From the NCBI RefSeq assembly GCF_000203795.2, contig NW_006281102.1, forward strand, positions 910,567 through 974,566: a stretch of 64,000 nt of DNA, written 5' to 3'. The position numbers and the translations under genes are program-made. Source of the DNA: Batrachochytrium dendrobatidis JAM81 (lineage: Eukaryota > Chytridiomycota > Chytridiomycetes > Rhizophydiales). Shown here piece by piece: positions 10,968 to 31,624 of the stretch. The stretch's first letter is position 1. Every line of letters starts with the position of its first letter. The notes below the pieces were generated by a model. The model had not been told where the DNA came from, made no database searches, and saw nothing but the letters and a program-made list of their open reading frames with translations.

Positions 10968-12665
10968 TCATTTAGATATACTACAGGATGAGATTGGGTC
11001 TAATGCTGTGACAAATAGACGCACTAGTTTTAGATTATGAGTGTATAGTTCTATAAAATTGAAATAAAGATTTAGCAGGATATCACAAATGTAGTTTATA
11101 ACAAAACATGACATACTATCAAGTTCTACTGCCAGTTTTGTGTCCATATCTAGTTCGGTCAGTTCATTGGCAAGTAAAGTGGTAGTATGCACAGATGAAG
11201 ATGGTGATTTCAGCTGATTGAGCTTGGTTGGTTTCAAAGTTTCATTATAATGGACATTGGACGTGTTAAAAATACTCAAAGGAGTTTTCGATTCAATTGA
11301 TCCAGAGGTGAGTTTAAAATCAGAAAGTTCAGCATCCATATCATGCGATTCAATAGTAGCTGCTAAAGTCTCGTGCTGTTCTTGAAGTGCACTCACTTGA
11401 CGTGTCATGATATCCAAGTGCTCTCGCAGTTGATGGTTGGCTTGCTCCTTCAATGTAAGTTGCTCAGTAAGCTCATCGATTTTCTCATCTCTGTCCTCTA
11501 CTTGAATAATTGCCTCGTGCGTAGCATTTATTGCCTGCAGCGAACACCCACCCAAAATAGATCATTGGGTTAATAGTTGGTCAAATGATATCAATGGAAA
11601 TACACTTGAGCAACTATACCTCGTTCAAATGTTTCCGCAACTCTTCTATCATTTCATCTGACTGGTGCGAATGTTCGACTTGGAAATCTTCCGCGGACTC
11701 GTGCAGAAACCCGTTGGTGTTATTCATAGAGTCTATAAAAAGTATCAAACATAGCAGCAAGCACAGTATGAGACTTTGAAACAGATCAGTTTTAAAAATA
11801 CAAATTACCTTTGTTTTCAGCAAGTAACAAAGCCAGATCGATAACTTTAGCTTCCAGGTCCTGTTTTGCTGCTGCCGCAGAAGCCTGTTCAGACATCAGC
11901 ATCATATTACTGTTATCCAAGTCGGTTGTCAAATTAGATACAGTTCTTTGGTAATGCAATAACTGGATTTCCAGATCCGACAATTGATCTTGCAGCTCAA
12001 ACTTGTGGAGTTCGGCAGCATCTGCTTGCAGTTTGAGTCGTTCAATTTCGACATCTTTATCATTCGACAACTATAGTTTAGAGATAAATTTTTAGTAAAT
12101 CAGGTCAATGGCTTCAATATCTGATTTATACTGACCTTTTGAAGTCTAGCATAAGCATCGATTATTTGGAGATTCTGCTCTTCCAGCATTGCATATTTAG
12201 ATGTCTGAATTCAAGCATCGACCAATGCATTATAAAACAGTCAGAGTTAAAGATGTTCAAGATTGACACTTTTAGCCTAGCTCATTGCTTTACCAATTCC
12301 ATTTCCTTGACATTGCTATCCAGTTTCGATGGTGGCGAATATTGCTCGGTACCAAAATTGTTAGCTTGAGGCTTTGCCGTTGATTCAAGTCGTTTAGGAG
12401 TACGATTTGGAGTTGGTGGTTTCTGTTTATACCCAGACATGTGTCAGTTCTTTTTAATCGATATCAACTGCAAGTAGGCAATAGAGAATAAATGGTCGAC
12501 TGCAATCTGGTTTCCATTCACCTTGAAGACATCAGAATGGCTGCCAGATTGACTTCTGGGAGAACCAAAAGACGAAGCCGAGCCTGGAAATGCCTTGTAT
12601 GAGTTTCCCAGCGAAGTGGACAGTCTCTTTGACGCTGTTGTAGAAATCGGTCTTGCAGATTTCAT
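10968..12665 (-). CDS. Coiled-coil protein of unknown function (intact copy)
   Basis: Seven exons keep frame: 12665-12522, 12422-12294, 12204-12136, 12070-11809, 11732-11620, 11534-11117 and 11050-10968, giving 405 residues. The first ~90 residues are basic and Ser/Thr/Pro-rich (KPPTPNRTPKR). The rest is almost entirely heptad-like: LEEQNLQIIDAYARLQKL, VEIERLKLQADAAELHKF, a long Gln/Leu/Glu helix, and IDELTEQLTLKEQ. No domain name can be given. The last intron (11116-11051) is 66 nt, a multiple of three with no stop codon, so retaining it would insert 22 residues in frame. A shorter model could start at the ATG at 12440, but the upstream exon splices cleanly into it. The 5' half lies in the duplicated segment and recurs at 29,089-29,600. 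Confidence 0.7.
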
Positions 12666-13393
12666 ATTGAAGGTCTACCAATTCGGTGACAAGTGTGCTG
12701 AATGGACGAAAACTTGACAACAAAATCTTACTCTGCAGTCAACCATCCGTGGTGAGGGTCGAATGAAGGCATGTGTTGGATTTGTAGCTTCCAGTTCAAC
12801 CGATACGTTGGGTTGTGAATCTAAACCATGCATTCGTAACTACTTTGTAGGGTGCAGATGGCCGTAAAAGAGCCGAGCGCAGACATGCATTCATGGCTTC
12901 ACAGACAGCAGACCAACACTCTCTTTTGAGAATAGGTGGAACCAAATGTGTGTTGGTGAAAGGCTGTCCGTTCTAACGAGTGCATTCTATGGCTTAGAAT
13001 CGTACTGGCTTTTGATTGGAGTCGCTAACTGTATTGATACTGTATCACCTTGCAGATCCCTTGATTGCTGATAACAGCATGCACCAATATATTGAGAGTG
13101 AAAACAGTCTGTAAGCCGTCATTGATAGGCTTTCTTGTTGGATAATCGATTTGTGGTCGAACCCATTTTTTGAAAATGACAACCTGACATTTAATCTACC
13201 ATTGAAAGCGTGCAATTACCAGGAACCTGCGATTTACTGGTCGATCGGTTTGACGGTCGAATGCTATTGGATGTAATACCATCACAGCAACCAACGGCTG
13301 ATTTGGAACAAAAGAAAGTCAATGCCGAACATGACGAATCAGAGCTTAATTTTGAGCGATATGCTGAACTGATTGATCAGGCTCGCCAGCAAT
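12154..13393. repeat. 1,240-bp segmental duplication, left copy
   Basis: Bases 12154-13393 match 29089-30328 at a constant offset of 16,935 with no insertion or deletion seen. I saw only two substitutions, both near the right end (CAGAGC/CGGAGC and GAACTG/GATCTG). The segment carries the first two exons and part of the third of the coiled-coil gene, the short divergent promoter region, and the first exons of the CLASRP-like gene. The right border coincides exactly with the left end of a hAT element at 13394. Confidence 0.95.
12666..12738. promoter_or_regulatory. Probable bidirectional promoter, coiled-coil gene / CLASRP
   Basis: Fewer than 75 bp separate the coiled-coil start codon (12665) from the first exon I can support for the CLASRP-like gene (12739), which reads the other way. 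Any core promoter for the two must lie here or overlap their 5' exons. It recurs unchanged at 29601-29673. No TATA box is obvious. Confidence 0.4.
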
Positions 13394-13440
13394 TAGGGTT
13401 CCGCAAAAATTCGCAAATGCGAAATGCGCTTGCGAAATGA
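12739..13440 (+). pseudogene. 5' fragment of CLASRP-like gene, cut by a hAT element
   Basis: This is the left copy of the first exons of the CLASRP-like gene (see 29674). It contains the RKRAERR stretch, the DRFDGRMLLDVIP motif and LNFERYAELIDQARQQ, then ends at 13393 where the hAT element begins. If transcribed, the frame runs on into the transposon and stops at 13438-13440 after about 15 foreign residues. The C-terminal two thirds of the gene are missing here. It is one substitution away from the intact copy in the DRY/EERY region (Glu versus Asp). Confidence 0.85.
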
Positions 13441-16222
13441 AATGGATTTTTGGATTGCGAAATAATCATTATTTCGTATTCCTATTCCTGAGATCACCTT
13501 AAACTACCACGCTATAACATAATGTAACTTCCTCTATGGGTGTGTATGAACTGTCGTCAATGTCCATCGATGGACACAAGAATGCAAGCAAAGGAAAAAG
13601 GAGACTCAATGACAGTCATGACCATGCATCGTCCTCCTTACCCTCAATCACATGCTCTATTCCTTTAACAACCACACGTTTGTCTAAAGTCTCAAAGGCC
13701 AGTTTGGTGTGGCAGTTTTTTGACAAGCTTGATGATATAAAAGACCTTGACAAGGCGAGAATTCCCTGTAAAGTTTGTCAGCAGCTCGTCAAGACAAATT
13801 CAAGAACCAACTTCAATCTTGTTGCCCATTTGGTGACCAAACACCGCGACGCTCTATCAGATGCAATGGATCGGTATTCCAAAGACTCCACAAGTATAAG
13901 TTTGAAGGGTACAAAACTACAAAGTAAGACTCGAGACTGCTTTGAAAAAGGTAATCATTACATACTCGTATGATGCGTCATTATTTCTGCTGTCTGGAAT
14001 ATTAATATTGTATTTTTTGATGTAATCTATTTTCTTGTACTGACAGGGTTTACCCAAACAGAATTTCAAAACAAGCTACAGCGGTGGATCGTTGGTGACC
14101 AGCAATCGCTTTTGGTTGTTGAGAATCCCTATTTTCAACAAATGATGTTGTACATCAACAAGCATATCATTTTCAAGTCCGCCGATACTGTATCACGAAC
14201 TGTGAATCGTGATTTCGAAATTGCAAAAGCTGACGTTTATGCTCTTATCAAAGAAAACACATCCAAGATCTCGTTTACGACCGACATATGGACATCGCCA
14301 GACAATGTTGCTTACACGGCCGTCACTGCCCATTTTATTGACAAAAATTGGAAACTGAAATGCATTCTTGTCGACTTTCTTGTATTTAATGACAGCCACA
14401 GCGGCCAGAACATTGCGGCATTATTCAAGCAGATTGTGGAACCCATATGCGGTGATAGAAAATCGCTCATTTTAGGAATCTGCACTGACAATGCGTCCAA
14501 CAATGAGGTTTTCATTCAAGAGCTCATCAATTCTGGTTATTTGGAATCTCCCGAATGTCATCATCGTTGCTTTGCACATGTCCTTGATCTTGCCGCCCAA
14601 GATGCACATCAAGAGATCAAGACATCAATCGAGACACTGAGGGAAGGGATTAAATTGCTACAATGTTGCCCCGCATCGATGGAACAACTGAAAATGATAG
14701 TGGGAGAATCTTAAAGCCAATCCTTGATGTTTCCACGAGATGGAACTCTACATTCGATATGCTGGTCACATCTTTGAAAATGCGAGGTATGTCAAGGATC
14801 TAGAGCTGAACTTCAAGAGCACTTTATGTATGCCAACCTGCAGTTAAATTTGCAATAACATGTTGTCTTTAAATTTGTTAATTAGGACCACTCATTCAAA
14901 TCTTGGATCAATTGTACATGGAAAAGAAGATCCCTGACGTGCCGTCAGCGAGAGATTGGGACGACTTGACTGAATTAGTGCATTTTTTTCAACCATTTAA
15001 ACAAGCCACAATGGAATGCAGCAGCAACAAGTATCAAACGTTGTCATACGTTATACCATGGTACAACGTGTTATTGGACCATTGTGAAAATGCCGTCAAT
15101 GATTATGGACAATGATTAGACGCTTCGATTTCTGGAACTCCAGCAAGTTGTCGGATAATTGCCAATGGATCGCTTGCAATTGATACATTGGAAATTTGAA
15201 AGGCGCAGCAAATGCATCCCAAATGCATCTCAAACGAGGCTTGACAAGTATTTTAATGTTTCCAATAACCATTGTGTGATCGCTGTGGTACTTGATCCTC
15301 AACACAAACTTGAGTTTTACGACGACGAAAATCAGAATGTCCAAGAAAATGCTTTTCAGAAAGAAAAAATCAAAAAGGCAAATCCAAAGCGTCTATGCCG
15401 AGTACCACAATCAAAGTGGCTTGATGCAATTAGAGGTATTCAAAACGGCATTGGACTTGTCAGATAATCACATGCGTAATTACTTGTATTTAAACTTTGT
15501 TACGCTCATTTCATTAGAATTCGAATGCACCTACTCCAGCAAGTAGGGTTTTTTAAAAGAAAAAGTTGGCTTCTACTTTGCAACTCGAAGAATATTTGAA
15601 TACTCAAGTGGTGGATCCTAGGCAAGACCCATTGGAGTGGTGGAAACATCATGGATTGGATTTCCCCTTGCTTGCAAAAATGGCAAGGGATTATCTAGCA
15701 ATTCCAGCCACATCTGCGTCCTCGGAGCACGCCTTTTCAAAGGCAAGGCATTTAATTACTGATTCGCGGACCAGACTGAGCGATCAGACAATCAGAGCTA
15801 GTATCTGCTTGGGAAATTGGCAGCGAGGTGGAATTTGGTGATTTGAGTTATTCAATGGTAGAAAACTTACATATGCAGATGGATTGAAAGGAGAAATGCT
15901 GGGTTACATATGAATTTATTATAATTGCAGGAGACGGTTTCCAAAGGATGGAGATCTGGAATAGGATACTTGTCTCGTTTTTAAAGCAACGATATACGTG
16001 CGTAGTTTTTGCACGCATCCCATAGATGTGGTCGTTGTTGATATTGTTTTTACCTCGGACTGTCGAAATATAGTATGATACATGTATTGTTTATCATATT
16101 ATTAAGCAAAATTTTATGTGAATTTCACAAATTTGCAGCGAAATGTGCGAAATAAATCCAGAGGTCCATTTCGCATTGCAAAAGATATTGACAGGGACAG
16201 ATAGCGCAAATGTGGAACTCTT
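13394..16222 (+). mobile_element. hAT DNA transposon, copy 1 (defective)
   Basis: About 2.83 kb. The left end reads TAGGGTTCCGCA; the right end is a decayed inverted version (AAATGTGGAACTCTT ending near 16222). Repeated GCGAAAT/ATTTCGC words crowd both subterminal regions, as expected for hAT transposase-binding sites. It encodes a BED-finger transposase with breaks. No 8-bp target duplication is seen: the left flank is CCAGCAAT, the right flank GGTACAAC. The left flank is an exon of the CLASRP-like gene, whose continuation is not found on the right. Confidence 0.9.
13536..15841 (+). pseudogene. hAT transposase with BED zinc finger, inactivated
   Basis: The pieces in order are: a BED finger (WQFFDKLDD, CKVCQQ, HLVTKH); an intron at about 13951-14045; the catalytic core with TTDIWTSPDN and CTDNASNN (probable acidic residues) and CHHRCFAHVLDLA; then, after a break near 14712, LDVSTRWNSTFDML in another frame; a further exon from about 14885; and the C-terminal dimerisation region (PLEWWKHH, SSEHAFSKARHL, with the third acidic residue). 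The frame is broken at the TCTTAAAGCC site and again near 15110-15240. Copy 2 carries the same breaks, so the lesions predate the copies' separation. Confidence 0.85.
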
Positions 16223-16299
16223 GGTACAACACATGTCAACATACATGTACTGTAGTGTATTGTACACTAGTAGTGATGATTCAACCAACGACATGCGTG

Positions 16300-16870
16300 G
16301 TTTTAATACTATACGTGAAACTGCATGTTCATGGTTATGGTGACATGTCGGTGTTTGATACATGCAGTGTTACAATGATGTGTCAGCAACAATGTGATGT
16401 AACTGGATGTGCAATATTAAAACCATGTCCAAAATATGTGATGTAACAACAACTTGCAGCCATATCGATGCAAATGAACCACTAAATAACAGTGTTGGTG
16501 TCTGATAAACAGTTGCATTACTGACATGTGTCATCATTGTTGTTGAACTAGATTGCGATTGTATCCGTGATTCAGAATACAACAAATGTACAGAGTTGTA
16601 TTGACAATATCGACAGTCAAACACAATACATGAATGTGAGTTCAAACTTGGTGATCGTACAATGCATGATTACTAAGAGTGCACAAAGTGTAGATTCAAC
16701 ACTATATTCTGATTGTGTCATATGATGATGGTTGTGTTTATTGAACAATCAATTCCTAATATAAATGTGAATATTTAATCATTGTTTATCCCAAAATAAA
16801 ATAGTGACAATCACCAAGATAAATGTGTTCCATTTTACTGAATACTGCTGTAAATGTATTCAAAACTAGA
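16300..16870 (+). repeat. Degenerate copy of the dispersed TIR family
   Basis: The stretch 16620-16860 follows the same order of blocks as the copy at 42530-42948: ATACATGAATGTGAGTTCAAACTTGGTGATCGTACAATG-like core, GTTTATTGAACAATCAATT, AATATTTAATCATTGTTTATC, CAAAATAAAATAG, and a right end near GTGTTCCATTTTACTGAATAC. Divergence is high and the left border is unclear. Confidence 0.4.
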
Positions 16871-19800
16871 GTCCATATTCTCACACATAACAAGAACTGA
16901 AAAATGCCATCATAGATACTAATCACAAGAAATCTAAAACCCAAGTTGCACAACTACTATGCTTTAATTCGAGTAGATAAACAACCATCAATGTGACAAC
17001 CTAAAAAACAACCGTCATGTTTTAGCATTTACACTGTAAGCCATTTGTTACAATGCGTAAACCAAAATCATGTCTAGTGTCTGACCAACTGGTTGTTTGG
17101 ATCAAAACCGTGTCTGTCCAAGTTGATGATGCGATAAACCAAGAAATACATCAAATCTCGGTAAGTGCTGTCACACTTTCCAGGTTGCTGAAACTCACAT
17201 TACGCACAACTTGACATGAATGGCAATGTTGATGTCGAGACTATCAATGTATTACAATGTATTGGTCAACAGTGACTGCGATCAATGACAATGTTGCAGT
17301 CAATTCAATCCATGTGTTAACGCACATGAATGTCGATACTCGAATCAATGTGTTGACTGGAACAATCACCATCCACTTGTCAGATTCAGCATGCAAATGC
17401 ATTACTGCTGACACTGATTGACACCATAAATACAGTCAGGCAGCACAACAAATCACCAGCATGTCATTAACCGTATTGCAATACAGTTGATTAATATATC
17501 ATGCTCATCAAGTCACGACATACAACAACATTATTGACTGAACACAAGTCACAACTGCAAGTATTCATGTGGTAATAGACTGAAATTGGTGTTGATATCC
17601 AATTGATTGACTAATCGATCATCATCAATTGCATCAGTGGTTGGTATATGCAATTGATATACACCATGTCCGAGTCTGATACATGTCGATATATGCGTGT
17701 CAATCAACAATGCATATTTGTGGCCATTACAGTCGAATGTGAGTCGAGTCGATCATTGAATCAACGAATCAATGATTGCAGTCTAAATGTGGTACGATTT
17801 GATGCGTCATGACAATATATTGTCCAACAGGTTCAACATACACAACACCGATATCCAATACATCACACATGAATACACTGCATATACAAGCAGTAGCAAT
17901 GATCGATCCAAACCAACAATGACAGAGTTACTCATCAACATATACTCGATCATCAGTCGAGTCTGCATATATCAACTAGTTGCAACACGTCATAATGTGG
18001 ATTATATTGTCCACCAATCGATCATGACAGCTAATCAATACCAATCATGTAGTCAATACAATCACCAACATATCGATGATTGTTGACTTGTGGTTACAAC
18101 TCGTCAATTGCATCCAATGTTACAGGTGATGCACATCTGATTACTGCAAATCAACAACTTGTCAATCATATCATAGTGTGTATTACCAACAGACCATGCA
18201 ATTACAAATCAATGTATACGTGATCAACATTTGATATTTGATGGTGATGAACCAACCATGATTGATTATATCATGCAACTAATGCAGTTGTATTGTCTGG
18301 TATTTATGATCAACCCAATCATGTCAAACAATAACTAATGTGTGTATATCGAGTTTGTGTTGCATGGACACATCAAGGTGTTTGATAACGAGTCCAACGT
18401 GATGATACAAACCCAATATTATATGAATATCCAAATTGATGAATCAAGTCGAGGTTTGCAAAGTGTCAATGTCAGGTCAATCAAACGAATCAGTCAACCA
18501 TTATATTGTGACTAGTGATGGCACGGTTTGAATATCAACGAGTTAGACAGTCGATAATATGTGATGATTGTGATTTGGTCAAACTGCAACACTCGCATAC
18601 CACTGGGTCGGTTTGATGTGTGTGATGTATTCAGTGATCGTATACTGGTTGATTGGTGCAATATGATCATGTCACATACTATTGTATTGGTGACAAATGT
18701 TTTTGCATGACAATGGTATGTATGTATAACTGGGCCATCATGCACCAGTTGTGTGTGGTTGACATTGATCATCATGACATGTATTCAAATACAACATTAT
18801 CAACATGTATCATGTCGTTTGTGATCAACTATAACTGGCGTGGATTGTGCACTGTAGCTATATGGTATTGATTGCAGTTGTTGATTAATACTCGGACTAC
18901 TGTGGTGCTGAGCGACTGAATCCAATTGCAGTGTATATGCAACTGAGCTGATATTCGGTTGTTGGATGGTCATCAATATGTGTTGTGGTTGACATGATTC
19001 AAACATGTCGTGGTTTGGTGATGCTCTGCATTCAACTCGACACGATCAATCATCACTGCATATTACTCAGTAATTCAATCAATCAACTGAATCAATACAA
19101 TCCAGTTCATGTTGCAATCACAGCATCACATTGATGATCAATGACTTGCAACCGTTGTGTTGGCATTTCATGTTGTGTGATGCTATATCAACATTGATTG
19201 TCACTATATAGTTGTATCAACCACACATTATGATCATATGTCATGGTTGACTCGTATTCTGGATTGATGCACTCATTCCACTCCATTCCATTCCATCACT
19301 CGAAGACAAACATCGTATGACTTGTTGATTGCTAATACCCATATTGATCGAATACACACTACATGACACATGTCAGGTTAGCGTATACATTCCACTATAT
19401 ATCACATCATGTTGCTGATACCACGCATTGTGATTCAACAGTCAATCTGTATTCGAGTTCGACTACAATTGTTCGTGTCAATCATAATATACACGACCAA
19501 TTGTAGTCGAGTTAATCCGACTGAATAGAGTCCGAGTCATCATGTTCATATCAAGCCATTGTAAACCATGACAAGTCTATTACACAACTCCACTCGTGTT
19601 GATTCCAACATGCTATTCATAAATGTATCATATTGTCCTGTAATGACTGTACATGATTGTACATGATTGTTTGAAACCAGTAACTCCGTCAATTGATATC
19701 CACAATATGATCCAGTAGTCGTCTAGATTGTGTGTTGTATTTGGTGTGTTGGGTGATGATATCAACCTGTAGTCAAGGTTTGACTATCTGAACATGTCGG

Positions 19801-20667
19801 TGACTTTTTACCAACTGTGTGCAACTCGATGTCCAATATCGAGTCATGTCATTGGTCAATTGATTGGTTCAATTCATCAGTGGGTTTGCTGGATTCATGT
19901 GGTGTGCAGCACTTTCAAGAGTATGTTGAATCTGTTGCAGTATTGGAACTTTGTAAACGGATCAACATACTAACCTGACCATGATTGTGGTGGTTATTGC
20001 AGTCGAGTCGTAAAGCTTATTCTGGCAATCATTGATGGTTTCAACAGTCATTTAAATAATCGTTTGGATGTCAGGTTACGATATCCTGATTGACAACTCG
20101 ACTCGGATACAGCTTATTTGGACAATTACTGATCAATGGATTGATCAATGGACTAGCAACCAATCAACACATTGACAGATTTGTCATTCCAAATGGAAAC
20201 AACGACAATCCAGTTGTAATCCATATTGAGCCTTGAATTCAAACAGTCGTGAATCAAATCATTAATAAACTACAAAAACAGTCCAATATGCCAACTCGCA
20301 TTTATCCACAACTCGATACGTGATGTTCAAATGTCTAATATTCAGACTGTGCTGATTGCAATTGTGGTTGTAATTGTGGTTGTGTGTAAATATCAATCCA
20401 ATACTCGATTCAATACTTGATTCAACTTGAGCATGTACAGTTTTGTAGTAATCCATTTGATCACATTGACAGAATCAAGCAATGATCTGATTCAACAACA
20501 CCAAATAACGTATCCATATCACTTGTATCAATCAATTGTACACAATCAGTCAATATAATCAACAATCACTGTCATGATTGACATGATTGATTCAATTCAT
20601 TCAATTGCATAGATCTGACTGACATTGCAACTCATTATTGTATAAATCACAACCTCATAATCCATCA
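16871..20667. other. ORF-poor tract of unusual word composition
   Basis: About 3.8 kb with no open frame worth calling on either strand and no recognisable repeat body. By eye it is dominated by short words such as TGAT/ATCA, CAAT/ATTG, GTTG/CAAC and TCGAGT/ACTCGA on both strands, and its texture is unlike the other intergenic DNA here. Small local repeats occur (CCATTCCATTCCAT near 19280; two GTACATGATT units near 19650). It merges without a sharp border into the DUF4246 pseudogene. I cannot say what it was. Confidence 0.5.
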
Positions 20668-22699
20668 TCAACGATCAAGATTATACACCCACTCATATCT
20701 GTATTTGTTGTATGCTGCTGTGATTCGAGTTCGGTCACTTGTCAATTCATCTCGATAGTGTTTGGCTTCAGCTGGTGATTGAACACCTTGAATATACTGC
20801 GTGGCATCATTCCACAGTTCAGGCGGTATGTGTGTCTTGTCAAAACTCGAGTTGTACCATTGTGGTTGTTGTGGAGCCACATGCGCAGTCGAAACAATCC
20901 GACGAGATGGATTCACTACAAAAAATGTCAGAATCTTGCAGTGTCCTGGTTGAGTTGGATCTGCAAGTTCAAATGATTGTTCTTTGTGTTGGTATCGATT
21001 GGGATAAACTACACATCGACCATTTGGTAATTCAAGCGATCCTATATACTGATTGCGTGGTGATTCTAGATCAATGTCGTACACATCTTTCCAATACATA
21101 TCAGATGCCATTTCATCAAACCGATCGACAGCCTCGCGGTAATCGAGTTTGGGTGTGGTGATATTTTCCACGTCGTAGTAATACAGTCCAGTTGCAACAA
21201 TCGATTCGTTAATTGGACATTCATTGTGCCAGTTTCCCTCGTCGTATTTAGATTTGGATGGTGTCAGTTGAATGTTGGTGAGTTTGACAATGACTTGTAG
21301 ATTACGACCACGCAGTGACACTGGCTTTGCTGATTCATATTTGGATTCAAAATGTTCCGGAAGTGTTGGTACATACACGGGACGAATGACTCGAGTGTCC
21401 GGTTCCATACCACCACGATCTGATCGGTTTGGTGGCTCATATCCCTTTGTGCCATTGCGAATATCAATATACTTGAACATTGGATGTATCGTTCTGAACA
21501 GACTTTCAAACATTGGGACAAAACATTTGAATATTTTGGCAATGCATTTGTACATGTCTCGATGCCATATCGGATTCAGATTGTTGATGTATGAGTTGAT
21601 GGTCACACTGCCATCCTGTTCGACACGGAATTCACTCGGAAGCCATTGGAACTTGCGTGATATAAACTCGGGACTGCTGTCAATGATGGGCACATTTGAA
21701 ACAAGTCGAGTCGATAACAATATATCGCATGGTACCATTGTGGTGTATTTGAGTCGTATATCCAGTGGTGCAATTATCGTTTGTCCATATACAACACTGT
21801 ACATTGATGCATCAATCAGATTGTGCACCATTTGACCAGTGTTGTGATTTGATCCATGTTCAATATCCGATACATTTGTCATCAATCGCGTGTATACATT
21901 GTCAGGTATGCCATTGTCCAGTATATACGTCAGTTCAACAGGTCCTGGGACAATTGTACCAAATCCATCACTGCCACTACAAACAAGCTGTTTGACAAAA
22001 CCCCGAGTTGTTCCAATGCAAGATTAAATGTTGATGGCAATATATTCTGATCGAGTGAGTCAGCCCTCCATTGCTCCACAATATGCTGGTTTGTGATATC
22101 GATCCACCACATGGGTTTGCAAAGTATAGATTGCAGATATTGGATATATTGCATTTCGACAAGTGTGCGTACCTCTCCATGTACATATCCGGCCATTCCA
22201 GAACTCATATCAATTTTGGCATTGTCGTTGTATGGCTGAATGTCCGGACTAGCAACGTGAACCCGATGCTGGAAACACGTTTCAATGATCTGGCCAGCAA
22301 CCCTCTTGTTCATGTATTCAGCAGTGTCCGATTTTACAATAGCCGTTAGATTTTCAAGTATCCCGCCTTGATCCAACTCGGTACGTATTGAATTGTCGGG
22401 ATGATTGTCGGCAAAATCAACAAATATTTTGAGTAGTTTTACAATACCATCATAGTCACACAAACGTATATCTCTACGTGAAAGAACAGTGTTGAGTTGC
22501 TGCACAATTTCATATTCTTGAAACACCTTAGTAGTATAGATTGGGCACCGAATGATACCAGTTTTTTTAGCAGACACTTAGTAAATTCTGTACAATGTTG
22601 CTCAAATGAAAAATTGCCTGTGGCCTTCACTTCAGATAAAATTATGGCAGCAAGTATATGGGCAAATATTTGTGAGGAATAGTTTTGTGCGAGACTCAT
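20668..22699 (-). pseudogene. DUF4246-family protein gene with two frameshifts
   Basis: The C-terminal 400 residues (frame 21885-20668) match the fungal DUF4246 family: RPVYVPTLPEHFE, VSLRGRNLQVIVKLTNIQLT, NWHNECPINESIVATG, GLYYYDVENIT, FELADPTQPGHCKIL and VNPRRIVSTAHV-like text. Family function is not established. Upstream, the frame must shift near 22000 (a run of C/G and T) to join the N-terminal piece containing KPMWWIDITNQHIVEQWRA, and again at a seven-base homopolymer near 22565 to join a start at 22699. The first ~150 residues are unrecognised. Two frame breaks make it a pseudogene unless they are sequence errors. Confidence 0.75.
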
Positions 22700-22886
22700 A
22701 TTAGATGCTTATTACTTACAAGAGCATTGAGTATTCGATTAAACCTATATGCCCACTAGATCGACACGAAAAATACGGTTTCAACATCAGCAAGGGAAGC
22801 AGACTGTTTTATTCAGTCGAAAATAAGGTTCCATATATCGACATTGAGCTACTCTATTTTCATTACTGACCCACAGGTGAGCAGAT

Positions 22887-23380
22887 CTAGACAATGAATC
22901 CGTTAGTATCTTTCAGATAGGCAACACTTGTCCCCAAGGCTTTGTTTTCGGCGTGGCCATGGCAACAGCGACATTATCAACCGCATATTGAAAGTCTTGA
23001 TTAACATTGTTAGAGACGAATGAGATCTGAAAAGCAGGGGGATTGTTGGAATCATGTCCTTGATAAGAAACGCCATTTGAGGTAGCAAGTTGGTGGTCGC
23101 AGAAGGCCAGGGTTGTTTCCCCAGTTTCCGCCTCCGCATATCCACTTTCATGGATAAAGCGTCTCTTCAGACCGAAGGCTTTTTCGTAAAACTGAACAGT
23201 CTCTTCAACTTGATCAACGTATAAGATGGTGTAGTGCCAAACTTCATTGTGTTTACTTGAATTGCGGAAACTCTGCTGTTTATAAACTTTTCCGCCGATA
23301 AGTGAAAAAACTCGACCCAAAACCAAAAGGTGGACAGACCAGCGATGACCCTTCACAACCACAGCGACAGCAGTGGACAC
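22887..23380 (-). pseudogene. Glyoxalase/VOC-domain gene remnant
   Basis: Reading from about 23250 down there is a clear vicinal-oxygen-chelate (glyoxalase-like) domain: HYTILYVDQVEETVQFYEKAFGL, with FIHESGYAEAETG, LAFCDHQLA, FQISFVSNNV and KTKPWGQ following. After WGQ the frame is lost. The expected ending (SVAYLKDTNGFIV) is present in another frame and stops at 22887, so one base is missing or extra near 22915-22930. Upstream of 23250 the open frame continues but has no domain similarity, so the true start is uncertain. Its 5' part overlaps the start of the retropepsin-like gene on the other strand. Confidence 0.65.
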
Positions 23381-23869
23381 TTACTCATGGACGCTCCTGG
23401 ATACATCAAACCGGACCTCCAAGACTTGCTGTTGACCGACATAACTGCCAAAGAACTACGAGTCATTGCTGAGGCTATGGAAGTTGACTATTTGGGACCA
23501 GCAGCGTTTCCAGGGATGTTTCCGGCAGCAGGAAGAATTTGGGTTCCAAATCATCGACTTATGGTGACATTGGTTTGTCGACGCCAAACAACAAAGGAGG
23601 CTTCTGCTTGCAACATCATCTTTTTGATTGATACAGGCTCTCCAACCACGTTCCTATGCCAGGAAGCCATGGAAGCATTGATCGGGAAGGACTCTCATCT
23701 ACCGCAATCACTCTGGGTTGAAATCCAGAGTGAAGAAGCCATCCTGACTCACATTTCCCCCAAGGGCAGCCATTTTGCTGATGTAAACGTGTTGGGAATG
23801 GATTTTCTTGCCCAGAACAGAGTATTTCCAATTCCCAATTGGATGAAAAGAACATTCATCCTTCAATAA
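23345..23869 (+). CDS. Single-domain retropepsin-like aspartic protease
   Basis: 174 residues from the first ATG. The N-terminal half is unrecognised (IKPDLQDLLLTDITAKELRV). The C-terminal half has the retropepsin layout: a beta-rich lead (HRLMVTLVC), the catalytic IIFLIDTGSPTTFL with Asp-Thr-Gly-Ser, and about 70 residues later the hydrophobic-hydrophobic-Gly signature in VLGMDFL. Only one DTG is present, so the active form would be a dimer. No integrase or reverse transcriptase follows, so this is either a domesticated stand-alone protease or a retroelement remnant. A further small gene with a TATA box follows at 24029. Activity is unproven. Confidence 0.55.
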   Translation: MTLHNHSDSSGHLLMDAPGYIKPDLQDLLLTDITAKELRVIAEAMEVDYLGPAAFPGMFPAAGRIWVPNHRLMVTLVCRRQTTKEASACNIIFLIDTGSPTTFLCQEAMEALIGKDSHLPQSLWVEIQSEEAILTHISPKGSHFADVNVLGMDFLAQNRVFPIPNWMKRTFILQ

Positions 23870-23993
23870 ACATTTCTCAATGAATCAGTCTCAATTCACA
23901 CGAATTCTAAATTCTAGTTGAACAATCAGTGCTTAGTGGGGAGATTTGTGTGATTCGCTGGAAAGCTCCGCAACATTCCAGTGGTGTCTCGAT

Positions 23994-24000
23994 TATAAAA
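23994..24000 (+). promoter_or_regulatory. TATA box for the small gene at 24029
   Basis: TATAAAA lies 29 bases upstream of the ATG at 24029, a plausible core-promoter distance if the leader is very short. This is one of few clear TATA boxes in the window. Confidence 0.35.
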
Positions 24001-24028
24001 AGACGCAGGAGCTTAATTCACCCTTCAA

Positions 24029-24263
24029 ATGAGTGACTACGACCGCTTTGCCGACTGGATCAAGGAGCAACGGAGGTGTCCAGAAGATGCTTTGGAGACA
24101 AAAATCACAAATTGACATCAAATTTGTGCTCTATATTAAAGGGAATTGACCAGTCAAAGGGAATGCCAGCAGCTGCCAAGAAAACAGACTCTGAAAAGGC
24201 AAAAGCATTTTTATTGAAATGCTACATGACGGCATCAGTGTCGCTTGAAGTGCTGGATGAGTC
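24029..24263 (+). pseudogene. Truncated small gene interrupted by hAT copy 2
   Basis: It starts MSDYDRFADWIKEQRR, shifts frame near 24100, and continues as KGIDQSKGMPAAAKKTDSE, AKAFLLKCYMTASVSLEVL and DES to the exact left end of the hAT element at 24264. The LLKCYMTASVSLEVLDES part vaguely resembles the helical gag (UBN2-type) region of copia-like elements, which would fit the neighbouring protease, but I cannot confirm that. The 3' part is not found right of the hAT element. Confidence 0.4.
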
Positions 24264-27089
24264 TAATGTTCCGCAAAAAATTCGCAAATGCGAAATGAAA
24301 TGGATTTTTGGATTGCGAAATAATCATTATTTCGTATTCCTGTTCCTGAGATCACCTTAAACTACCACGCTATAACATAATGTAACTTCCTCTATGGGTG
24401 TGTATGAACTGTCGTCAATGTCCATCGATCGACACGAGAATGCAAGCAAAGGAAAAAGGAAGACCGACGACAGTCATGACCATGCGTCGTCCTCCTTACC
24501 CTCAATCCCATGCTCTATTCCTTTAACAACCACACGTTTGTCTAAAGTCTCAAAGGCCAGTTTGGTGTGGCAGTTTTTTGACAAGCTTGATGATATAAAT
24601 GACCTTGACAAGGCGAGAATTCCCTGTAAAGTTTGTCAGCAGCTCGTCAAGACAAATTCAAGAACCAACTTCAATCTTGTTGCCCATTTGGTGACCAAAC
24701 ACTGCGACGCTCTATCAGATGCAATGGATCGGTATTCCAAAGACTCCACAAGTATAAGTTTGAAGGGTACAAAACTACAAAGTAAGATTCAAGACTGCTT
24801 TGAAAAAGGTAATCATTGCATACTCGTATGATGCGTCATTATTTCTGCTGTCTGGAATATTAATATTGTATTTTTTGATGTAATCTATTTTCTTGTACTG
24901 ACAGGGTTTACCCAGACAGAATTTCAAAACAAGCTACAGCGGTGGATCGTTGGTGACCAGCAATCGTTTTTGGTTGTTGGGAATCCGTATTTTCAACAAA
25001 TGATGTTGTACATCAATAGGCATATCATTTTCAAGTCCGCCGATACTGTATCACAAATTGTGAATCGTGATTTCGAAATTGCAAAAGCTGACGTTTATGC
25101 TCTTATCAAAGAAAACACATCCAAGATCTCGTTTACGACCGACATATGGACATCGCCAGACAATGTTGCTTACACGGCTGTCACTGCCCATTTTATTGAC
25201 AAAAATTGGAAACTGAAATGCATTCTTGTCGACTTTCTTGTGTTTAATGACAGCCACAGCAGTCAGAACATTGCGGCATTATTCAAGCAGATTGTGGAAC
25301 CCATATGCGGTGATAGGAAATCGCTCATTTTAGGAATCTGCACTGACAATGCGTCCAACAATGAGGTTTTCATTCAAGAGCTCATCAATTCTGGTTATTT
25401 GGAATCTCCCGAATGTCATCATCGTTGCTTTGCACATGTCCTTGATCTTGCCGCCCAAGATGCACATCAAGAGATCAAGACATCAATCGAGACACTGAGG
25501 GAAGGGATTAAATTGCTACGATGTTGCCCCGCATCGATGGAACAACTGAAAATGATAGTGGGAGAATCTTAAAGCCAATCCTTGATGTCGCCACGAGATG
25601 GAACTCTACATTCGATATGCTGGTCACAGCTTTGAAAATGCGAGGTACGTCAAGGATCTAGAGCTGAACTTCAAGAGCACTTTATGTATGCCAACCTGCA
25701 GTTAAATTTGCAATAACATGTTGTCTTTAAATTTGTTAATTAGGACCACTCGTTCAAATCTTGGATCAATTGTACATGGAAAAGAAGATCCCTGACGTGC
25801 CGTCAGCGAGAGATTGGGACGACTTGACTGAATTAGTGCATTTCTTTCAACCATTTAAACAAGCCACAATGGAATGCAGCAGCAACAAGTATCAAACGTT
25901 GTCATACGTTATACCATGGTACAACGTGTTATTGGACCATTGTGAAAATGCCGTCAGTGATTATGGACAATGATTAGACGCTTCGATTTCTGGAACTCCA
26001 GCAAGTCGTCGGATAATAATTGCCAATGAATCGCTTGCAATTGATACATTGGAAATTTGAAAGGCGCAGCAAATGCATCCCAAATGCATCTCAAACGAGG
26101 CTTGACAAGTATTTTAATGTTTCCAATAACCATTGTGTGATCGCTGTGGTACTTGATCCTCAACACAAACTTGAGTTTTACGACGACGAAAATCAGAATG
26201 TCCAAGAAAATGCTTTTCAGAAAGAAAAAATCAAAAAGGCAAATCCAGAGCGTTTATGCCGAGTACGACGATCAAAGTGGCTTGATGCAATTAGAGGTAT
26301 TCAAAACGGCATTGGACTTGTCAGATAATCACATGCGTAATTACTTGTATTTAAACTTTGTCACGCTCATTTCATTAGAATTCGAATGCACCTACTCCAG
26401 CAAGTAGGGTTTTTTAAAAGAAAAAGTTGGCTTCTACTTTGCAACTCGAAGAATATTTGAATACTCAAGTGGTGGATCCTAGGCAAGACCCATTGGAGTG
26501 GTGGAAACATCATGGATTGGATTTCCCCTTGCTTACAAAAATGGCAAGGGATTATCTAGCAATTCCAGTCACATCTGCGTCCTCGGAGCACGCCTTTTCA
26601 AAGGCAAGGCATTTAATTACTGATTCGCGGACCAGACTGAGCGATCAGACAATCAGGGCTATTATCTGCTTGGGAAATTGGCAGCGAGGTGGAATTTGGT
26701 GATTTGAGTTATTCAATGGTAGAAAACTTACATATGCAGATGGATTGAAAGGAGAAATGCTGGGTTACATATGAATTTATTATAATTGCAGGAGACGGTT
26801 TCCAAAGGATGGAGATCTGGAATAGGATACTTGTCTCGTTTTTAAAGCAACGATATACATGCGTAGTTTTTGCACGCATTCCGTAGATGTGGTCGTTGTT
26901 GATATTGTTTTTACCTCGGACTGTCGAAATATAGTATGATACATGTATTGTTTAGCATATTATTAAGCGAATTTTATGTGAATTTCGCAAATTTGCAGTG
27001 AAATGTGCGAAATAAATCCAGAGGTCCATTTCGCATTGCAAAAGATATTGACGAGTCAAATAACAAAATTTTGCAAATGCGGAACCCTA
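24264..27089 (+). mobile_element. hAT DNA transposon, copy 2 (defective)
   Basis: About 2.83 kb, same orientation as copy 1 and nearly identical to it over the whole length; differences are scattered substitutions and a 3-base indel near 26015. The right terminal repeat is well preserved (GCGGAACCCTA ending at 27089); the left one reads TAATGTTCCGCA instead of TAGGGTTCCGCA. Flanks GATGAGTC (left) and GACCAAAC (right) do not form a target duplication. Confidence 0.9.
24394..26702 (+). pseudogene. hAT transposase with BED zinc finger, inactivated
   Basis: Second copy of the transposase described at 13536, with the same exon layout: BED finger from 24394, intron at about 24809-24904, core to 25572, exon from about 25745, C-terminal dimerisation piece to 26702. 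It has the same frame break at TCTTAAAGCC (near 25567) and the same disrupted region near 25970-26100. Residue differences are few, e.g. HRDAL/HCDAL in the finger region. Neither copy can make a full transposase as read. Confidence 0.85.
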
Positions 27090-27290
27090 GACCAAACAGC
27101 TCAAGAGGTTTGAAAAAGTATCTTTCCCAACCAAAGATGGTTTGTTTCCATTACGAAGATTTCTAATGTGTTCAACCCATCGCACATGAGGACTTGTGGT
27201 TGCCATTCCCAGTGTAAATGCTTTTTGAGCCATCTTTCCTAGTACTCTCACCAACGTAAACCCATCCAGCAGTGATTCAGATTTTGAAAA
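27090..27290 (-). pseudogene. Coding-like fragment abutting hAT copy 2
   Basis: On the minus strand a frame is open from about 27296 to a TAG next to the hAT end, reading LLDGFTLVRVLGKMAQKAF, then ATTSPHVRWVEHIRNLRNG and SLVGKDTFSNLLSCL. It looks like protein rather than random sequence but has no start codon in a sensible place and no recognised family. It is probably the remnant of a gene split by the insertion. Confidence 0.3.
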
Positions 27291-27327
27291 AATCGTAGAA
27301 TTTTTGTTTACATTTCAGCTCAAGACT

Positions 27328-28737
27328 ATGGAAAATCAACCTACGCTTGATATTCAGTCATTAAAGCAAGAATGCCCAGGAGTGGATTTCGATGCTCCTT
27401 TTCAATTCAATAAGGAATTCACCGTCGGTCACTATGTCCTGGAATTCCTCCCAACCACTTTGGAAATTATCAAGAATTCACCAAACATCAAAAACGACAC
27501 CATTCTCAAGTTTGTCAAAGCAGACTTTAAAGACTTTCGCTTGCCAATCACTCGCACTCAGTTTATGAGATACCTCCAATGTACGGAAGCATTCGCTGAC
27601 GACTTTATGGAAGCTCAGTCGTCTCATTTCGCAGTCACCTTTAAACCGAAAGAACACAAAATACTTCAAAAGTATGAAACTGTACCCTTCAAAATCAACC
27701 CACAATCAAAAACAAGCACATGTAATTACGGTATCGTACAGCAAGTTCAAATGGAAGGTCAAAAATTCGCACGAAAGGAGCAAAACATTACTAATGATGC
27801 TGTGATTAATTCTGAACTTGAAATTTTGCTAAAGGCGCCAGAGAATCCTCACCTAATCTCCTATCATGCATCTTACGAACAAGGTGGTAAATTCTATTTC
27901 ATCCTCTCCCCTTGGTGTGATTTGGATTTGGATTCATTCTTAAAAGCTCCAATGAAGTATGAATTTTGAAAAACAAGTACCCGCCCCATGCGTTTGGCTC
28001 TCATTACTGGTTGGATGGCATGCCTTGCTGCTGGCCTATCTTTCCTTCATAAATCAAGGATGAAGCATAGGGATTTAAAGCCTGCTAATATTCTTCTACA
28101 AATTGGCGATAGTCATATCAGCCCTGTGATTTGTGATTTCGGGCTTTCAAAAATTTTCAACTCAGAGTCAAAATCAATGAAGATAGGAGGTACAACTTAC
28201 TACATATCACCGGAACAAGCCAGAGGAGAAAAAGTAGGACGTTCGGCAGACATTTTTGCTTTGGGGGCTATCTATCTCGAATTAGGGATGCTGCTATTTG
28301 GGATTAAACGGTATGTAAATTTTAAGCTAATGTGTAGGAAAAAAATGAAAAAACTAATTGAAATCTTTAGGCATATTTCTAAACTAATCGCTAGGAAAGG
28401 GAGAAAAGCGATTGGTTTTAATGGATTTTATACAATAGCTGAAAGTGACTCTGTTGGTGAATTACTGCTCTTGTTCGAAAAGGAAGGATACGAAGACTTT
28501 TGTGCTTTGTTTCGTAGTCTGCTTGAAAAGATGCTTGATAAAAAACCTGACAAGAGACCCACTGCGTTTGAAGTTTGGGAAATGACCCAAGACATTTTGG
28601 CGATACTCAAGCTGGAGCATCATTGTGATGGTGTATCCGGAAGTCCAGTTGATTCCGAACCAAGTCAAAAAGAGGTTGAAGGTTCTTCATCTGATAGCGA
28701 CGAGGAAGAAGATTGTTTTTTGTATAAACCCATTTGA
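27328..28737 (+). pseudogene. Serine/threonine protein kinase with one in-frame TGA
   Basis: The kinase core is clear: YGIVQQVQMEG in the position of the glycine loop, FARKEQ with the expected Lys, HRDLKPANILL, ICDFGLSK, YYISPEQARG and a C-lobe ending in DKKPDKRPTAFEVW. The first ~130 residues are unrecognised, and the tail is acidic (SSSDSDEEED). The frame is open from 27328 to 28737 except for TGA at 27967-27969, between the hinge region and the HRD helix; the frame resumes at once. A GTATGT...TTTAG intron of 60 nt (28311-28370), a multiple of three without stops, removes an insertion in the C-lobe. The TGA could be a recent nonsense mutation, a sequencing error, or rarely readthrough. Without it the protein would be 449 residues. 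Confidence 0.7.
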
Positions 28738-29088
28738 TCCTGGATTAAATAAAGCACAGGCGTGGATCTCGCATATACAAATGATCTCACATTTTTCATC
28801 AACTGGTGAGATTATACTACTAAGGTGATTGTAAGGGAATTAGAACATGGACAATATTACATTTGTAATTGTGTGGGGTAGTTGTAATTAACGTTAAATC
28901 TGTTTTCGATATTCCTGCCTTAAATTATGAGGAACTATGGTACCATTCAACGGTTTCATTGAAGACATCAAGTATGAGTCTGGCAGAGACCTCCTAATAT
29001 TTCAAACTAACAAACTTCCCATTATTCTTTCTACTCTTTTTGGCCCAGATTTCCTATCTCAGATAAATTGTGTTTTTGATCTTAATTT
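28738..29088. other. Spacer between kinase and right duplication copy
   Basis: Mostly non-coding. A frame opening at 28937 (MVPFNGFIEDIKYESGRD) runs into the duplicated segment and looks weakly protein-like, but no family or start context supports it. The island's right border is at 29088/29089. Confidence 0.3.
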
Positions 29089-29600
29089 AGCATCGATTAT
29101 TTGGAGATTCTGCTCTTCCAGCATTGCATATTTAGATGTCTGAATTCAAGCATCGACCAATGCATTATAAAACAGTCAGAGTTAAAGATGTTCAAGATTG
29201 ACACTTTTAGCCTAGCTCATTGCTTTACCAATTCCATTTCCTTGACATTGCTATCCAGTTTCGATGGTGGCGAATATTGCTCGGTACCAAAATTGTTAGC
29301 TTGAGGCTTTGCCGTTGATTCAAGTCGTTTAGGAGTACGATTTGGAGTTGGTGGTTTCTGTTTATACCCAGACATGTGTCAGTTCTTTTTAATCGATATC
29401 AACTGCAAGTAGGCAATAGAGAATAAATGGTCGACTGCAATCTGGTTTCCATTCACCTTGAAGACATCAGAATGGCTGCCAGATTGACTTCTGGGAGAAC
29501 CAAAAGACGAAGCCGAGCCTGGAAATGCCTTGTATGAGTTTCCCAGCGAAGTGGACAGTCTCTTTGACGCTGTTGTAGAAATCGGTCTTGCAGATTTCAT
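29089..29600 (-). pseudogene. 5' fragment of the coiled-coil gene
   Basis: Copy of the first exons of the gene at 10968-12665: exon 1 at 29600-29457, exon 2 at 29357-29229, and the first 51 bases of exon 3 (29139-29089). After that the sequence is unrelated. The start codon and promoter are intact, so a short N-terminal product could be made. Confidence 0.85.
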
Positions 29601-30328
29601 ATTGAAGGTCTACCAATTCGGTGACAAGTGTGCTGAATGGACGAAAACTTGACAACAAAATCTTACTCTGCAGTCAACCATCCGTGGTGAGGGTCGAATG
29701 AAGGCATGTGTTGGATTTGTAGCTTCCAGTTCAACCGATACGTTGGGTTGTGAATCTAAACCATGCATTCGTAACTACTTTGTAGGGTGCAGATGGCCGT
29801 AAAAGAGCCGAGCGCAGACATGCATTCATGGCTTCACAGACAGCAGACCAACACTCTCTTTTGAGAATAGGTGGAACCAAATGTGTGTTGGTGAAAGGCT
29901 GTCCGTTCTAACGAGTGCATTCTATGGCTTAGAATCGTACTGGCTTTTGATTGGAGTCGCTAACTGTATTGATACTGTATCACCTTGCAGATCCCTTGAT
30001 TGCTGATAACAGCATGCACCAATATATTGAGAGTGAAAACAGTCTGTAAGCCGTCATTGATAGGCTTTCTTGTTGGATAATCGATTTGTGGTCGAACCCA
30101 TTTTTTGAAAATGACAACCTGACATTTAATCTACCATTGAAAGCGTGCAATTACCAGGAACCTGCGATTTACTGGTCGATCGGTTTGACGGTCGAATGCT
30201 ATTGGATGTAATACCATCACAGCAACCAACGGCTGATTTGGAACAAAAGAAAGTCAATGCCGAACATGACGAATCGGAGCTTAATTTTGAGCGATATGCT
30301 GATCTGATTGATCAGGCTCGCCAGCAAT
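29089..30328. repeat. 1,240-bp segmental duplication, right copy
   Basis: Partner of 12154-13393 (offset 16,935, no indels seen, two substitutions seen). Here the right end continues naturally into the rest of the CLASRP-like gene. The left end breaks off inside the third exon of the coiled-coil gene and is joined to unrelated island sequence. Confidence 0.95.
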
Positions 30329-31624
30329 GCAAGTGTTTGATATCTACAATTTTAAACCCATCATGCATTTAACAGGTCAAATTTACTATATTTAGGTGAT
30401 GAAGAAGACTGCATTGATGATGTTGACTACTATTGGAATACAAGCATTCAGAATGGATATTCAAGTCGCTCTGTAAAGTTAGTTGATTTGATGTGTTCAG
30501 ATTTTAAGCTTTCATTACTTTATAATATCATACCTATTTAATGCATATAGATTCAATATTGAAATTCTTGCAATAATTTGTCTTTTATTAACTCGAGTGT
30601 TTATTTTGTAATTGGTGTATATACAGACCACTCAAAGGAGTAAACATTGGATATGATTATTCAAGTAAAACCAAAGCCAGCCCGTCATCAGAGGATTTAT
30701 CCAACACAAACACTCAAGAAAAGTTTGAAGATATATTATCAAATATCCTTTTTCAAGTCTATCCATGGTGTTCTATTTTTGCGTATTTTCATGCCAGTAC
30801 TAATATGGCCGAGTTGACTTGACATTAATTGCTTGCTCATTTTTACCTACTAAAAATATTCATGAAATTCTAGGAAAGCTTGATAAGCCAGAAATAGATC
30901 GCCTAAATGATCTTGCAATAGAGTATGGCGTATCAAATTATACACGGTTGCTCTCTCGATCTGGAAATAACAAACCTTCACCCTCAAAAAACTATCGTCA
31001 GCCACATCACACACAAAAAAATCAGTCTAGGCAATCAAAATATAACTCCGATTTTGCCACTAATGAGTTTGGCCGACTTAGAGAAAGACAAGATCAGTCA
31101 AGCTTGGCTATATCTGCGTGTCATTCTAGTCCAAATGCATCCGACTTGGAAACATTGGACCAAATCAGTTTTGTATCGGAATTCAACAATAACGATGTGC
31201 AGTTGGCCCATAATGATGCTACTATTGCTGTGGAAAATGCACAGCCGGCTATTTTGAGCAACGATGTTACATCCTTATCGCCCTCGTTAGATATAAATAA
31301 TATTTTCAATGCAGCTTCAAACCCTTCATCTACGCCTTTAACATTACACCCGATCCAAGCGGCTTCTACCCTTATCAGTGAACATGTTCTTATGCTCAAA
31401 ACCACCATCAATCAGGATGAATCTGTGAGCATTTCACCAAAAATCGATTCGACCGATGTAGATGATTCTCCTGTCAAAATAAGTACGACTTTGATGAGTA
31501 TTTTGAAAATATGTGTATTTGTTTAAATAACCAATCTTGTTTCTAATCCAAACCAATGTTTTTAGAATTTAAACGCAAAAATACATCAAAAATAGAAAAG
31601 AAATATCGCCAGCGACTAGACTGA
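29674..31624 (+). CDS. CLASRP: CLASRP-like SR-related splicing regulator (intact copy)
   Basis: Predicted nuclear splicing regulator related to CLASRP/SWAP proteins. In order: a basic RKRAERR stretch, DRFDGRMLLDVIP (the DRY motif), LNFERYADLIDQ (the EERY motif), a YYWNTSIQNGY segment where CLASRP has its tyrosine-rich helix, VNIGYDYS, and PEIDRLNDLAIEYGVSNYTRLLSR matching the CLASRP segment before its RS region. A Ser/Asn-rich tail follows in place of a long RS domain, and the protein ends KIEKKYRQRLD. Exons I can support are 29674-29703, 29786 to ~29900, 29991-30045, 30144-30322, 30396-30477, 30627 to ~30750, ~30876-31482 and 31566-31624. The intron after base 30322 has donor GCAAGT; the first intron also appears to use GC. 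The first exon and start codon are unresolved. Confidence 0.8.

What the first reader, a model, noticed from the sequence alone, without database searches (positions are those of the whole stretch)
12154..30328. 15.7-kb accessory island between 1,240-bp direct repeats that preserve both split genes
The coiled-coil gene and the CLASRP-like gene were evidently adjacent and divergent. They are now separated by 13394-29088, flanked by near-identical 1,240-bp copies of their shared 5' region. The left copy completes the coiled-coil gene and the right copy completes CLASRP. Insertion with so large a duplication lets an island enter between two genes without destroying either. The near identity implies a recent event, or a collapsed repeat in assembly.
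Basis: partly seen in the sequence, partly recalled or inferred. Interest (0 to 1): 0.85.

Follow-up and report, generated by a model that had tools for sequence, protein, structure and literature searches.

The report
Gene pair duplicated around transposon-rich block
In a frog-infecting chytrid fungus, two neighbouring genes were pushed 15.7 kb apart by a block of mobile and repeated DNA, yet each still has one uninterrupted copy because their shared 1,240-bp start region is present on both sides, and one edge of that repeat falls exactly on the end of a transposon.

Summary
Database proteins cross both breakpoints: the CLASRP-like gene is whole only on the right, the coiled-coil gene only on the left. 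A second assembly (tag prefix BDV3, which I read as JEL423 V3) lists the island's kinase seven gene numbers from the coiled-coil gene, which argues against an artefact.

The interpretation needs changing. The repeat is not a target-site duplication of the island. Its right edge is exactly the 5' terminus of a hAT transposon (hAT1, 13394), beside an 8-mer that is unbroken in the right copy; the other hAT1 end lacks that 8-mer. The block is a mosaic: two hAT copies, a repeat common near contig ends, a DUF4246 repeat, a single-copy kinase gene. Best reading: a joining at a hAT end, then end-joining to a second copy of the locus broken inside the coiled-coil gene, overlapping by 1,240 bp. Maize Ac/Ds makes related structures. 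The pathway is not proven; a longer duplication trimmed by hAT insertion and hAT-hAT deletion remains possible.

The parts
12154..13393 (.). Left copy (A) of the 1,240-bp repeat: 5' part of the coiled-coil gene (-), shared 5' region, 5' part of the CLASRP-like gene (+)
29089..30328 (.). Right copy (A') of the 1,240-bp repeat
10968..12665 (-). Coiled-coil gene, complete with the left copy (spliced)
   Evidence: Residues 92-405 of P0005 placed by tblastn; residues 1-91 placed only by reading frames
29698..31624 (+). CLASRP-like (PF09750) gene, complete with the right copy (spliced)
   Evidence: Residues 54-392 of P0001 (RTP6_002044) placed by tblastn (residue 181 not covered); both ends placed only by reading frames
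12763..13393 (+). Truncated 5' part of the CLASRP-like gene in the left copy, runs into hAT1 after ...QARQQ
   Evidence: start placed by analogy with the right copy
29089..29600 (-). Truncated 5' part of the coiled-coil gene in the right copy, leaves homology after ...LQIIDA
   Evidence: start placed by analogy with the left copy
13386..13393 (+). Putative 8-bp hAT target CCAGCAAT; unbroken in the right copy (30321-30328), not repeated after hAT1
13394..16222 (+). hAT1: hAT transposon copy, 5' terminus exactly at the repeat edge; 3' terminus degenerate
   Evidence: BED zinc finger and hAT dimerisation domains; end comparison
16223..16740 (+). Flank shared with hAT copies on C33 and C6, whose left flanks differ
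16575..18933 (.). Repeat enriched near contig ends (core 17391-18653)
18934..22529 (-). Copy of a DUF4246 gene repeat (38 other long matches listed), cut at 22529
22530..24263 (.). Further repeated DNA with a sharp edge at 22530, a glyoxalase-like reading frame (22913-23380, -) and a reading frame 23306-23869 (+)
24264..27089 (+). hAT2: second hAT copy, 97.9% identical to hAT1 over 2,766 aligned positions; 5' terminus degenerate, 3' terminus matches the hAT1 5' terminus 12 of 12
27328..28737 (+). Protein kinase gene, single copy in this genome, with an in-frame stop in the simple reading
28967..29077 (+). Fragment of a dispersed, apparently non-coding repeat, the last recognisable piece before the right junction
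29088..29089 (.). Right junction: island joined to coiled-coil exon; the last island base (T) differs from the ancestral base (A), no microhomology seen

Best explanation
This is an overlapping re-joining of two copies of one locus around a transposon-rich block, started at a hAT end. Shown: the left copy stops exactly at the 5' terminus of hAT1; the right copy stops inside an exon of the coiled-coil gene; the filler is a mosaic of hAT copies, a repeat common near contig ends, a DUF4246 repeat and a single-copy kinase gene. Inferred: (1) in one copy of the locus (sister or homologous chromosome) a hAT 5' end became joined to the target CCAGCAAT in the CLASRP-like gene, by insertion or by alternative transposition using ends of two hAT copies; (2) DNA lying beyond that hAT end came with it; (3) its free end at 29088 was joined without clear homology to a second copy of the locus broken at 12154 in the coiled-coil gene. 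The left arm comes from one copy and the right arm from another, overlapping by 1,240 bp, so each gene keeps one whole copy.
For: The homology ends at 13393 and hAT1 starts at 13394; a chance breakpoint would fall on one of four hAT termini in about 4 of 15,696 cases. CCAGCAAT before hAT1 is unbroken in the right copy, and the 8 bases after the hAT1 3' end are GGTACAAC. hAT1 5' and hAT2 3' ends match each other 12 of 12; the inner ends (hAT1 3', hAT2 5') match 9 and 10 of 12, and six ends of other copies 9 to 11 of 12. The remainder of the CLASRP-like gene occurs once, so no reciprocal product is in this assembly. The right junction lies in an exon. In maize, endpoints of nine Ac-induced duplications coincide exactly with Ac termini, and repeats of 1,262 and 1,257 bp lie at hAT ends in B73 (PMC3744419, passages and one section); three composite insertions quoted in PMC4270019 are 14.3, 19.3 and 23.2 kb (passages).
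Against: The classical maize product repeats the hAT together with the duplicated segment; here only the 1,240 bp is repeated and no hAT lies left of the first copy. No 8-bp target duplication was found for the 4 of 8 long hAT copies tested (hAT1, hAT2, C33, C6); the other 4 were not tested, so hAT mobility is not shown. The 12-of-12 match is measured against a consensus equal to those two ends. hAT1 shows patchy similarity to other copies, and three copies with different left flanks share one right flank, which also suits ordinary recombination between hAT copies. Empty sites in other strains could not be fetched.
Confidence: 0.5

Rival explanations
1. Ordinary two-step history: a longer segment was first duplicated with the block between the copies; later a hAT inserted at CCAGCAAT in the left copy, and recombination between that hAT and another hAT in the block deleted the rest of the left copy. 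The 1,240-bp length is then only what is left.
For: hAT1 has mismatched flanks, as expected after recombination between hAT copies; three hAT copies with different left flanks share the same right flank; hAT1 is patchily similar to different copies.
Against: Needs an insertion and a deletion after a duplication that is only 0.16% diverged, while hAT1 and hAT2 differ by about 2% and none of the 4 copies tested has a target duplication.
Confidence: 0.26
2. The island entered as one unit at a break whose two strands were cut 1,240 bp apart (or at two broken replication forks), and fill-in made the direct repeats.
For: Two near-identical direct repeats flank one block. Paired nicks around an origin are reported to cause segmental duplications (PMC11406185, start of abstract in a search listing only).
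Against: The island's ends do not match each other; the exact hAT edge is unexplained; Ac/Ds target duplications are 8 bp (PMC4270019, passages).
Confidence: 0.09
3. A DNA circle holding the 1,240-bp segment plus the block was integrated by homologous recombination in the intact locus, giving direct repeats of the shared segment.
For: Explains direct repeats of any length and intact genes; the right junction would be the circle closure. Rolling circles are part of the maize model.
Against: Needs a prior allele with the block already joined to the segment; no trace of it in the assembly.
Confidence: 0.07
4. Assembly artefact: haplotypes of a heterozygous locus joined wrongly.
For: The RTP6 authors describe earlier BdGPL assemblies as pseudohaploid and Sanger-based (PMC6284735, whole text); the 0.16% difference could be allelic. 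The position of the CLASRP-like gene in the second assembly was not seen.
Against: A record named JEL423 (BDEG_22151, P0013) also has the kinase. A misjoin would still need a read with the 29088/29089 junction.
Confidence: 0.06

Closest known systems
Tandem direct duplications by reversed-ends transposition of maize Ac/Ds (PMC3744419)
   Same: Duplication edge exactly at a hAT terminus; middle hAT with a mismatched flank; natural examples with repeats of about 1.26 kb
   Different: There each repeat starts with a hAT copy; here the hAT and a 15.7-kb block occur once, between the repeats
Composite insertions by transposition-mediated re-replication in maize (PMC4270019)
   Same: hAT end at a border, block of similar size (14.3-23.2 kb in three quoted cases), a join that looks like end-joining
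   Different: There both borders are hAT ends with 8-bp target duplications and the end-join is internal; here only the left border is a hAT end
Ordinary recombination between dispersed transposon copies
   Same: Patchy hAT similarity and mismatched flanks
   Different: Does not by itself duplicate 1,240 bp of unrelated unique sequence
Transposon target-site duplication
   Same: Direct repeats on both sides of inserted DNA
   Different: Over a hundred times longer than the 8 bp of Ac/Ds, and no common element ends

Membership tests
hAT superfamily (hAT1, hAT2) | Transposase with hAT C-terminal dimerisation region and BED zinc finger | tested here: met
   PF05699 E 3.3e-24 and PF02892 E 2.5e-05 on two of three hAT1 reading frames scanned; the third had no match; hAT2 frames not scanned
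hAT superfamily (hAT1, hAT2) | Short terminal inverted repeats | tested here: met
   hAT1 5' and hAT2 3' ends match 12 of 12; the inner ends 9 and 10 of 12
hAT superfamily (hAT1, hAT2) | 8-bp target-site duplication | tested here: not met
   hAT1 flanks CCAGCAAT and GGTACAAC; hAT2 flanks GATGAGTC and GACCAAAC; filed as hAT-derived copies by domains and ends, not as intact insertions
Reversed-ends tandem direct duplication | Duplication endpoint exactly at a hAT terminus | tested here: met
   13393/13394
Reversed-ends tandem direct duplication | Each repeat copy starts with the hAT element | tested here: not met
   Left of 12154 lies single-copy coiled-coil gene sequence, and hAT copies in the window lie only at 13394 and 24264. 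It works like it at one edge but is not filed as a member
Composite insertion | hAT termini at both borders with 8-bp target duplications | tested here: not met
   Right border 29088/29089 is a join to an exon, no hAT end
Insertion with target-site duplication | Inserted unit with recognisable matching ends | tested here: not met
   Ends match at 3 of 12 bases as an inverted repeat
Starship-type giant element | Tyrosine recombinase (captain) gene at one end (recalled) | tested here: inconclusive
   None among 9 island reading frames scanned with Pfam; not every frame was scanned

The most novel reading that the evidence does not exclude
hAT transposon ends in a chytrid carried out alternative transposition between two copies of a chromosome, dragging a 15.7-kb mosaic block into a divergent gene pair and duplicating its shared start region so that both genes survived: a gene-preserving way for repeat-rich DNA to enter chromosome interiors. 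In the papers seen here the related processes are described for maize.
Probability: 0.3. Interest if true: 0.62.

Novelty: new variant of a known kind. Interest (0 to 1): 0.42.

Why it matters
B. dendrobatidis genomes differ in repeat and gene content, and how repeat-rich DNA gets into chromosome interiors without breaking genes is unclear. Here the anatomy gives a testable case: one edge is a transposon end, the other a join without homology, and the overlap keeps both genes whole. If hAT ends cause such events, the same signature should be found by a simple scan for direct repeats that end at hAT termini. No chytrid case appeared in the rows listed by seven literature searches; several listings were capped well below the number of papers found, and the library lacks most subscription journals.

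Tried and rejected
A target-site duplication of a giant transposon: rejected because the block's ends do not match. A macrotransposon from the hAT1 5' end to the hAT2 3' end (13394-27089): attractive because those two ends match 12 of 12, but the sequence after 27089 is GACCAAAC and not CCAGCAAT, so simple macrotransposition does not explain it. The kinase as viral cargo: a scan of viral contigs matched 5 stretches, none encoding a relative. A clean mosaic breakpoint in hAT1: only patchy similarity was seen. A genome scan for the hAT1 5' terminus with up to 3 mismatches found only hAT1 itself, uninformative because the pattern was drawn from hAT1. The clustering of both differences within 53 bp of hAT1 (chance about 0.004 for either end) may mark limits of gene conversion, but two sites are too few. 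A shared right limit of the DUF4246 repeat first looked like an element end; it is only where the window's copy is cut, since other copies run on.

Relatives' DNA could not be read: the tools hold no other B. dendrobatidis assembly that I could reach, so presence in a second assembly rests on protein records, their locus-tag numbers and contig lengths.
Full report
OBSERVATION. 12154-13393 and 29089-30328 align over 1,240 bp without gaps and with 2 mismatches, at 13341 and 13368; bases just outside differ. The first 1,187 positions are identical. In the whole genome (23,491,484 bases, 33 contigs) the block occurs twice, both times here; the flanks 10900-12153 and 30329-31600 occur once each. 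0 of 200 shuffles of the surroundings shared a 20-mer.

ORGANISM. The best database matches for both genes are Batrachochytrium dendrobatidis. A JAM81 protein record (BATDEDRAFT_87872, P0009) sits on a contig of 1,600,105 bp, the exact length of the window's contig C21, so the window is taken to be from strain JAM81.

GENES. P0001 (RTP6_002044, 411 aa, PF09750) is the CLASRP-like protein. Its residues 54-115 lie at 30145-30330 with 100% identity and residues 54-114 at 13210-13392 with 98%; residues 116-392 lie only to the right. P0005 is the coiled-coil protein: residues 92-116 lie at 12204-12130 and 115-405 further left; in the right copy the match stops at residue 111, at about 29080. Residues 1-53 and 393-411 of P0001 and 1-91 of P0005 did not appear in that tblastn table; they were placed by reading frames only. 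Frames run into foreign sequence after ...QARQQ (left copy, CLASRP-like) and after ...LQIIDA (right copy, coiled coil). The left copy encodes E where the right copy and P0001 have D. The genes were therefore adjacent and divergent, and each is whole once.

THE BLOCK. It is a mosaic. hAT1 (13394-16222) and hAT2 (24264-27089) are 97.9% identical over 2,766 aligned positions; BED and hAT dimerisation domains were found in hAT1 frames. The genome search returned 17 matches, 8 of them long, these two included. 16223-16740 is a flank that hAT1 shares with the C33 and C6 copies, whose left flanks differ from it and from each other. 16575-18933 is a repeat. Of 67 listed matches I took the 40 long ones outside the window (26 short ones and the window itself dropped); 33 of the 40 lie on 16 contigs of known length, and 16 of these 33 lie within 50 kb of a contig end against 7.5% expected (contigs need not be whole chromosomes, and only the best candidates were scored). 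18934-22529 is a copy of a DUF4246 gene repeat; the five other copies compared at this point run on past 22529, whereas here another repeat begins at 22530. Of 71 listed matches I took 38 long ones outside the window; 34 lie on contigs of known length, 4 of 34 within 50 kb of an end (no enrichment) and 12 of 34 within 100 kb against 15% expected. For hAT it is 1 of 6 within 50 kb and 2 of 6 within 100 kb. 27090-28952 has no other match in the genome and holds a protein kinase gene. 28967-29077 is a fragment of a dispersed, apparently non-coding repeat.

THE LEFT EDGE. The homology ends at 13393 and hAT1 begins at 13394 with TAGGGTTCCGCA. The 8 bases before it, CCAGCAAT, are followed in the right copy by the uninterrupted gene; the 8 bases after hAT1 are GGTACAAC. 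A chance coincidence with one of four hAT termini is about 4 in 15,696. The left edge of the block is thus a hAT insertion or a hAT-end joining whose other side is missing here; the remainder of the CLASRP-like gene occurs once in the assembly. No target duplication was found for the 4 of 8 long hAT copies tested.

THE RIGHT EDGE. 29088/29089 joins island DNA, 11 bases past a repeat fragment, to a coiled-coil exon; the base before the join is T where the ancestral base is A, so I see no microhomology. There is no hAT end there; the outer ends of the island match at 3 of 12 bases as an inverted repeat.

REALITY AND AGE. The two copies differ by 0.16%, the two hAT copies by about 2%, so the hAT copies look older than the duplication. 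Records with prefix BDV3 list kinase 003759 and coiled-coil gene 003766, both with a longest contig of 2,390,478 bp. I read BDV3 as the third JEL423 assembly, made from nanopore and Hi-C data (PMC11797018, abstract and passages); its main text does not contain the prefix. A record named JEL423 (BDEG_22151) also has the kinase, on a contig of 2,313,122 bp. If so, the arrangement predates the split of the two strains and is unlikely to be an assembly fault. Order from tag numbers is an inference, and the tag of the CLASRP-like gene in that assembly was not seen.

HOW IT WORKS. The simplest account of both edges is that the left arm comes from a copy of the locus cut or joined at a hAT end in the CLASRP-like gene, and the right arm from another copy broken in the coiled-coil gene, with hAT-linked DNA between. 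The maize Ac/Ds system shows that hAT ends make duplications whose endpoints coincide exactly with transposon termini, including natural repeats of 1,262 and 1,257 bp (PMC3744419, passages and one section), and composite insertions, three of them quoted at 14.3, 19.3 and 23.2 kb (PMC4270019, passages). Two defining features of those products were tested and not met here: a hAT at the start of each repeat, and hAT ends at both borders. I therefore say it works like them at one edge and do not file it as a member. The main rival, a longer duplication trimmed by a later hAT insertion and hAT-hAT deletion, is the next most likely.

VERDICT. Observation confirmed; interpretation partly supported. 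A probably real rearrangement of a known general kind with an unusual combination of parts. No description of it appeared in the listings of the searches made.

Noticed in passing
27328-28737: Kinase gene with an in-frame stop in the simple reading; the JAM81 and BDV3 models differ around it. Relatives from environmental contigs (P0010, P0011, P0012) have no stop there. A 224-aa protein of Globomyces pollinis-pini (family Globomycetaceae) is 80% identical over 94% of the query piece, surprisingly close for another genus.
   Followed up: partly
18934-22529: DUF4246 gene repeat with 38 other long matches in the genome at about 92-95% identity and varied left limits; what spreads it is unclear.
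   Followed up: partly
22530-22710 and 28967-29077: Two dispersed pieces that lie next to each other, in opposite orientation, at other places in the genome (C1, C12, C26, C27); at one place read (L025) the second piece lies upstream of a long reading frame.
   Followed up: partly
61987-62473 and 62757-63241: 487-bp inverted repeat, 98% identical, a possible fold-back element.
   Followed up: no
38725-38899: 21-bp tandem repeat, 8.3 copies, inside a pentatricopeptide-repeat reading frame.
   Followed up: no
54005-58187: Multicopper oxidase and FTR1 iron permease reading frames near each other on opposite strands, which looks like an iron-uptake pair.
   Followed up: no
L049 and L050: hAT copies on C31 and C10 lie in a shared segment of 6 kb at 96.5% identity.
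   Followed up: no
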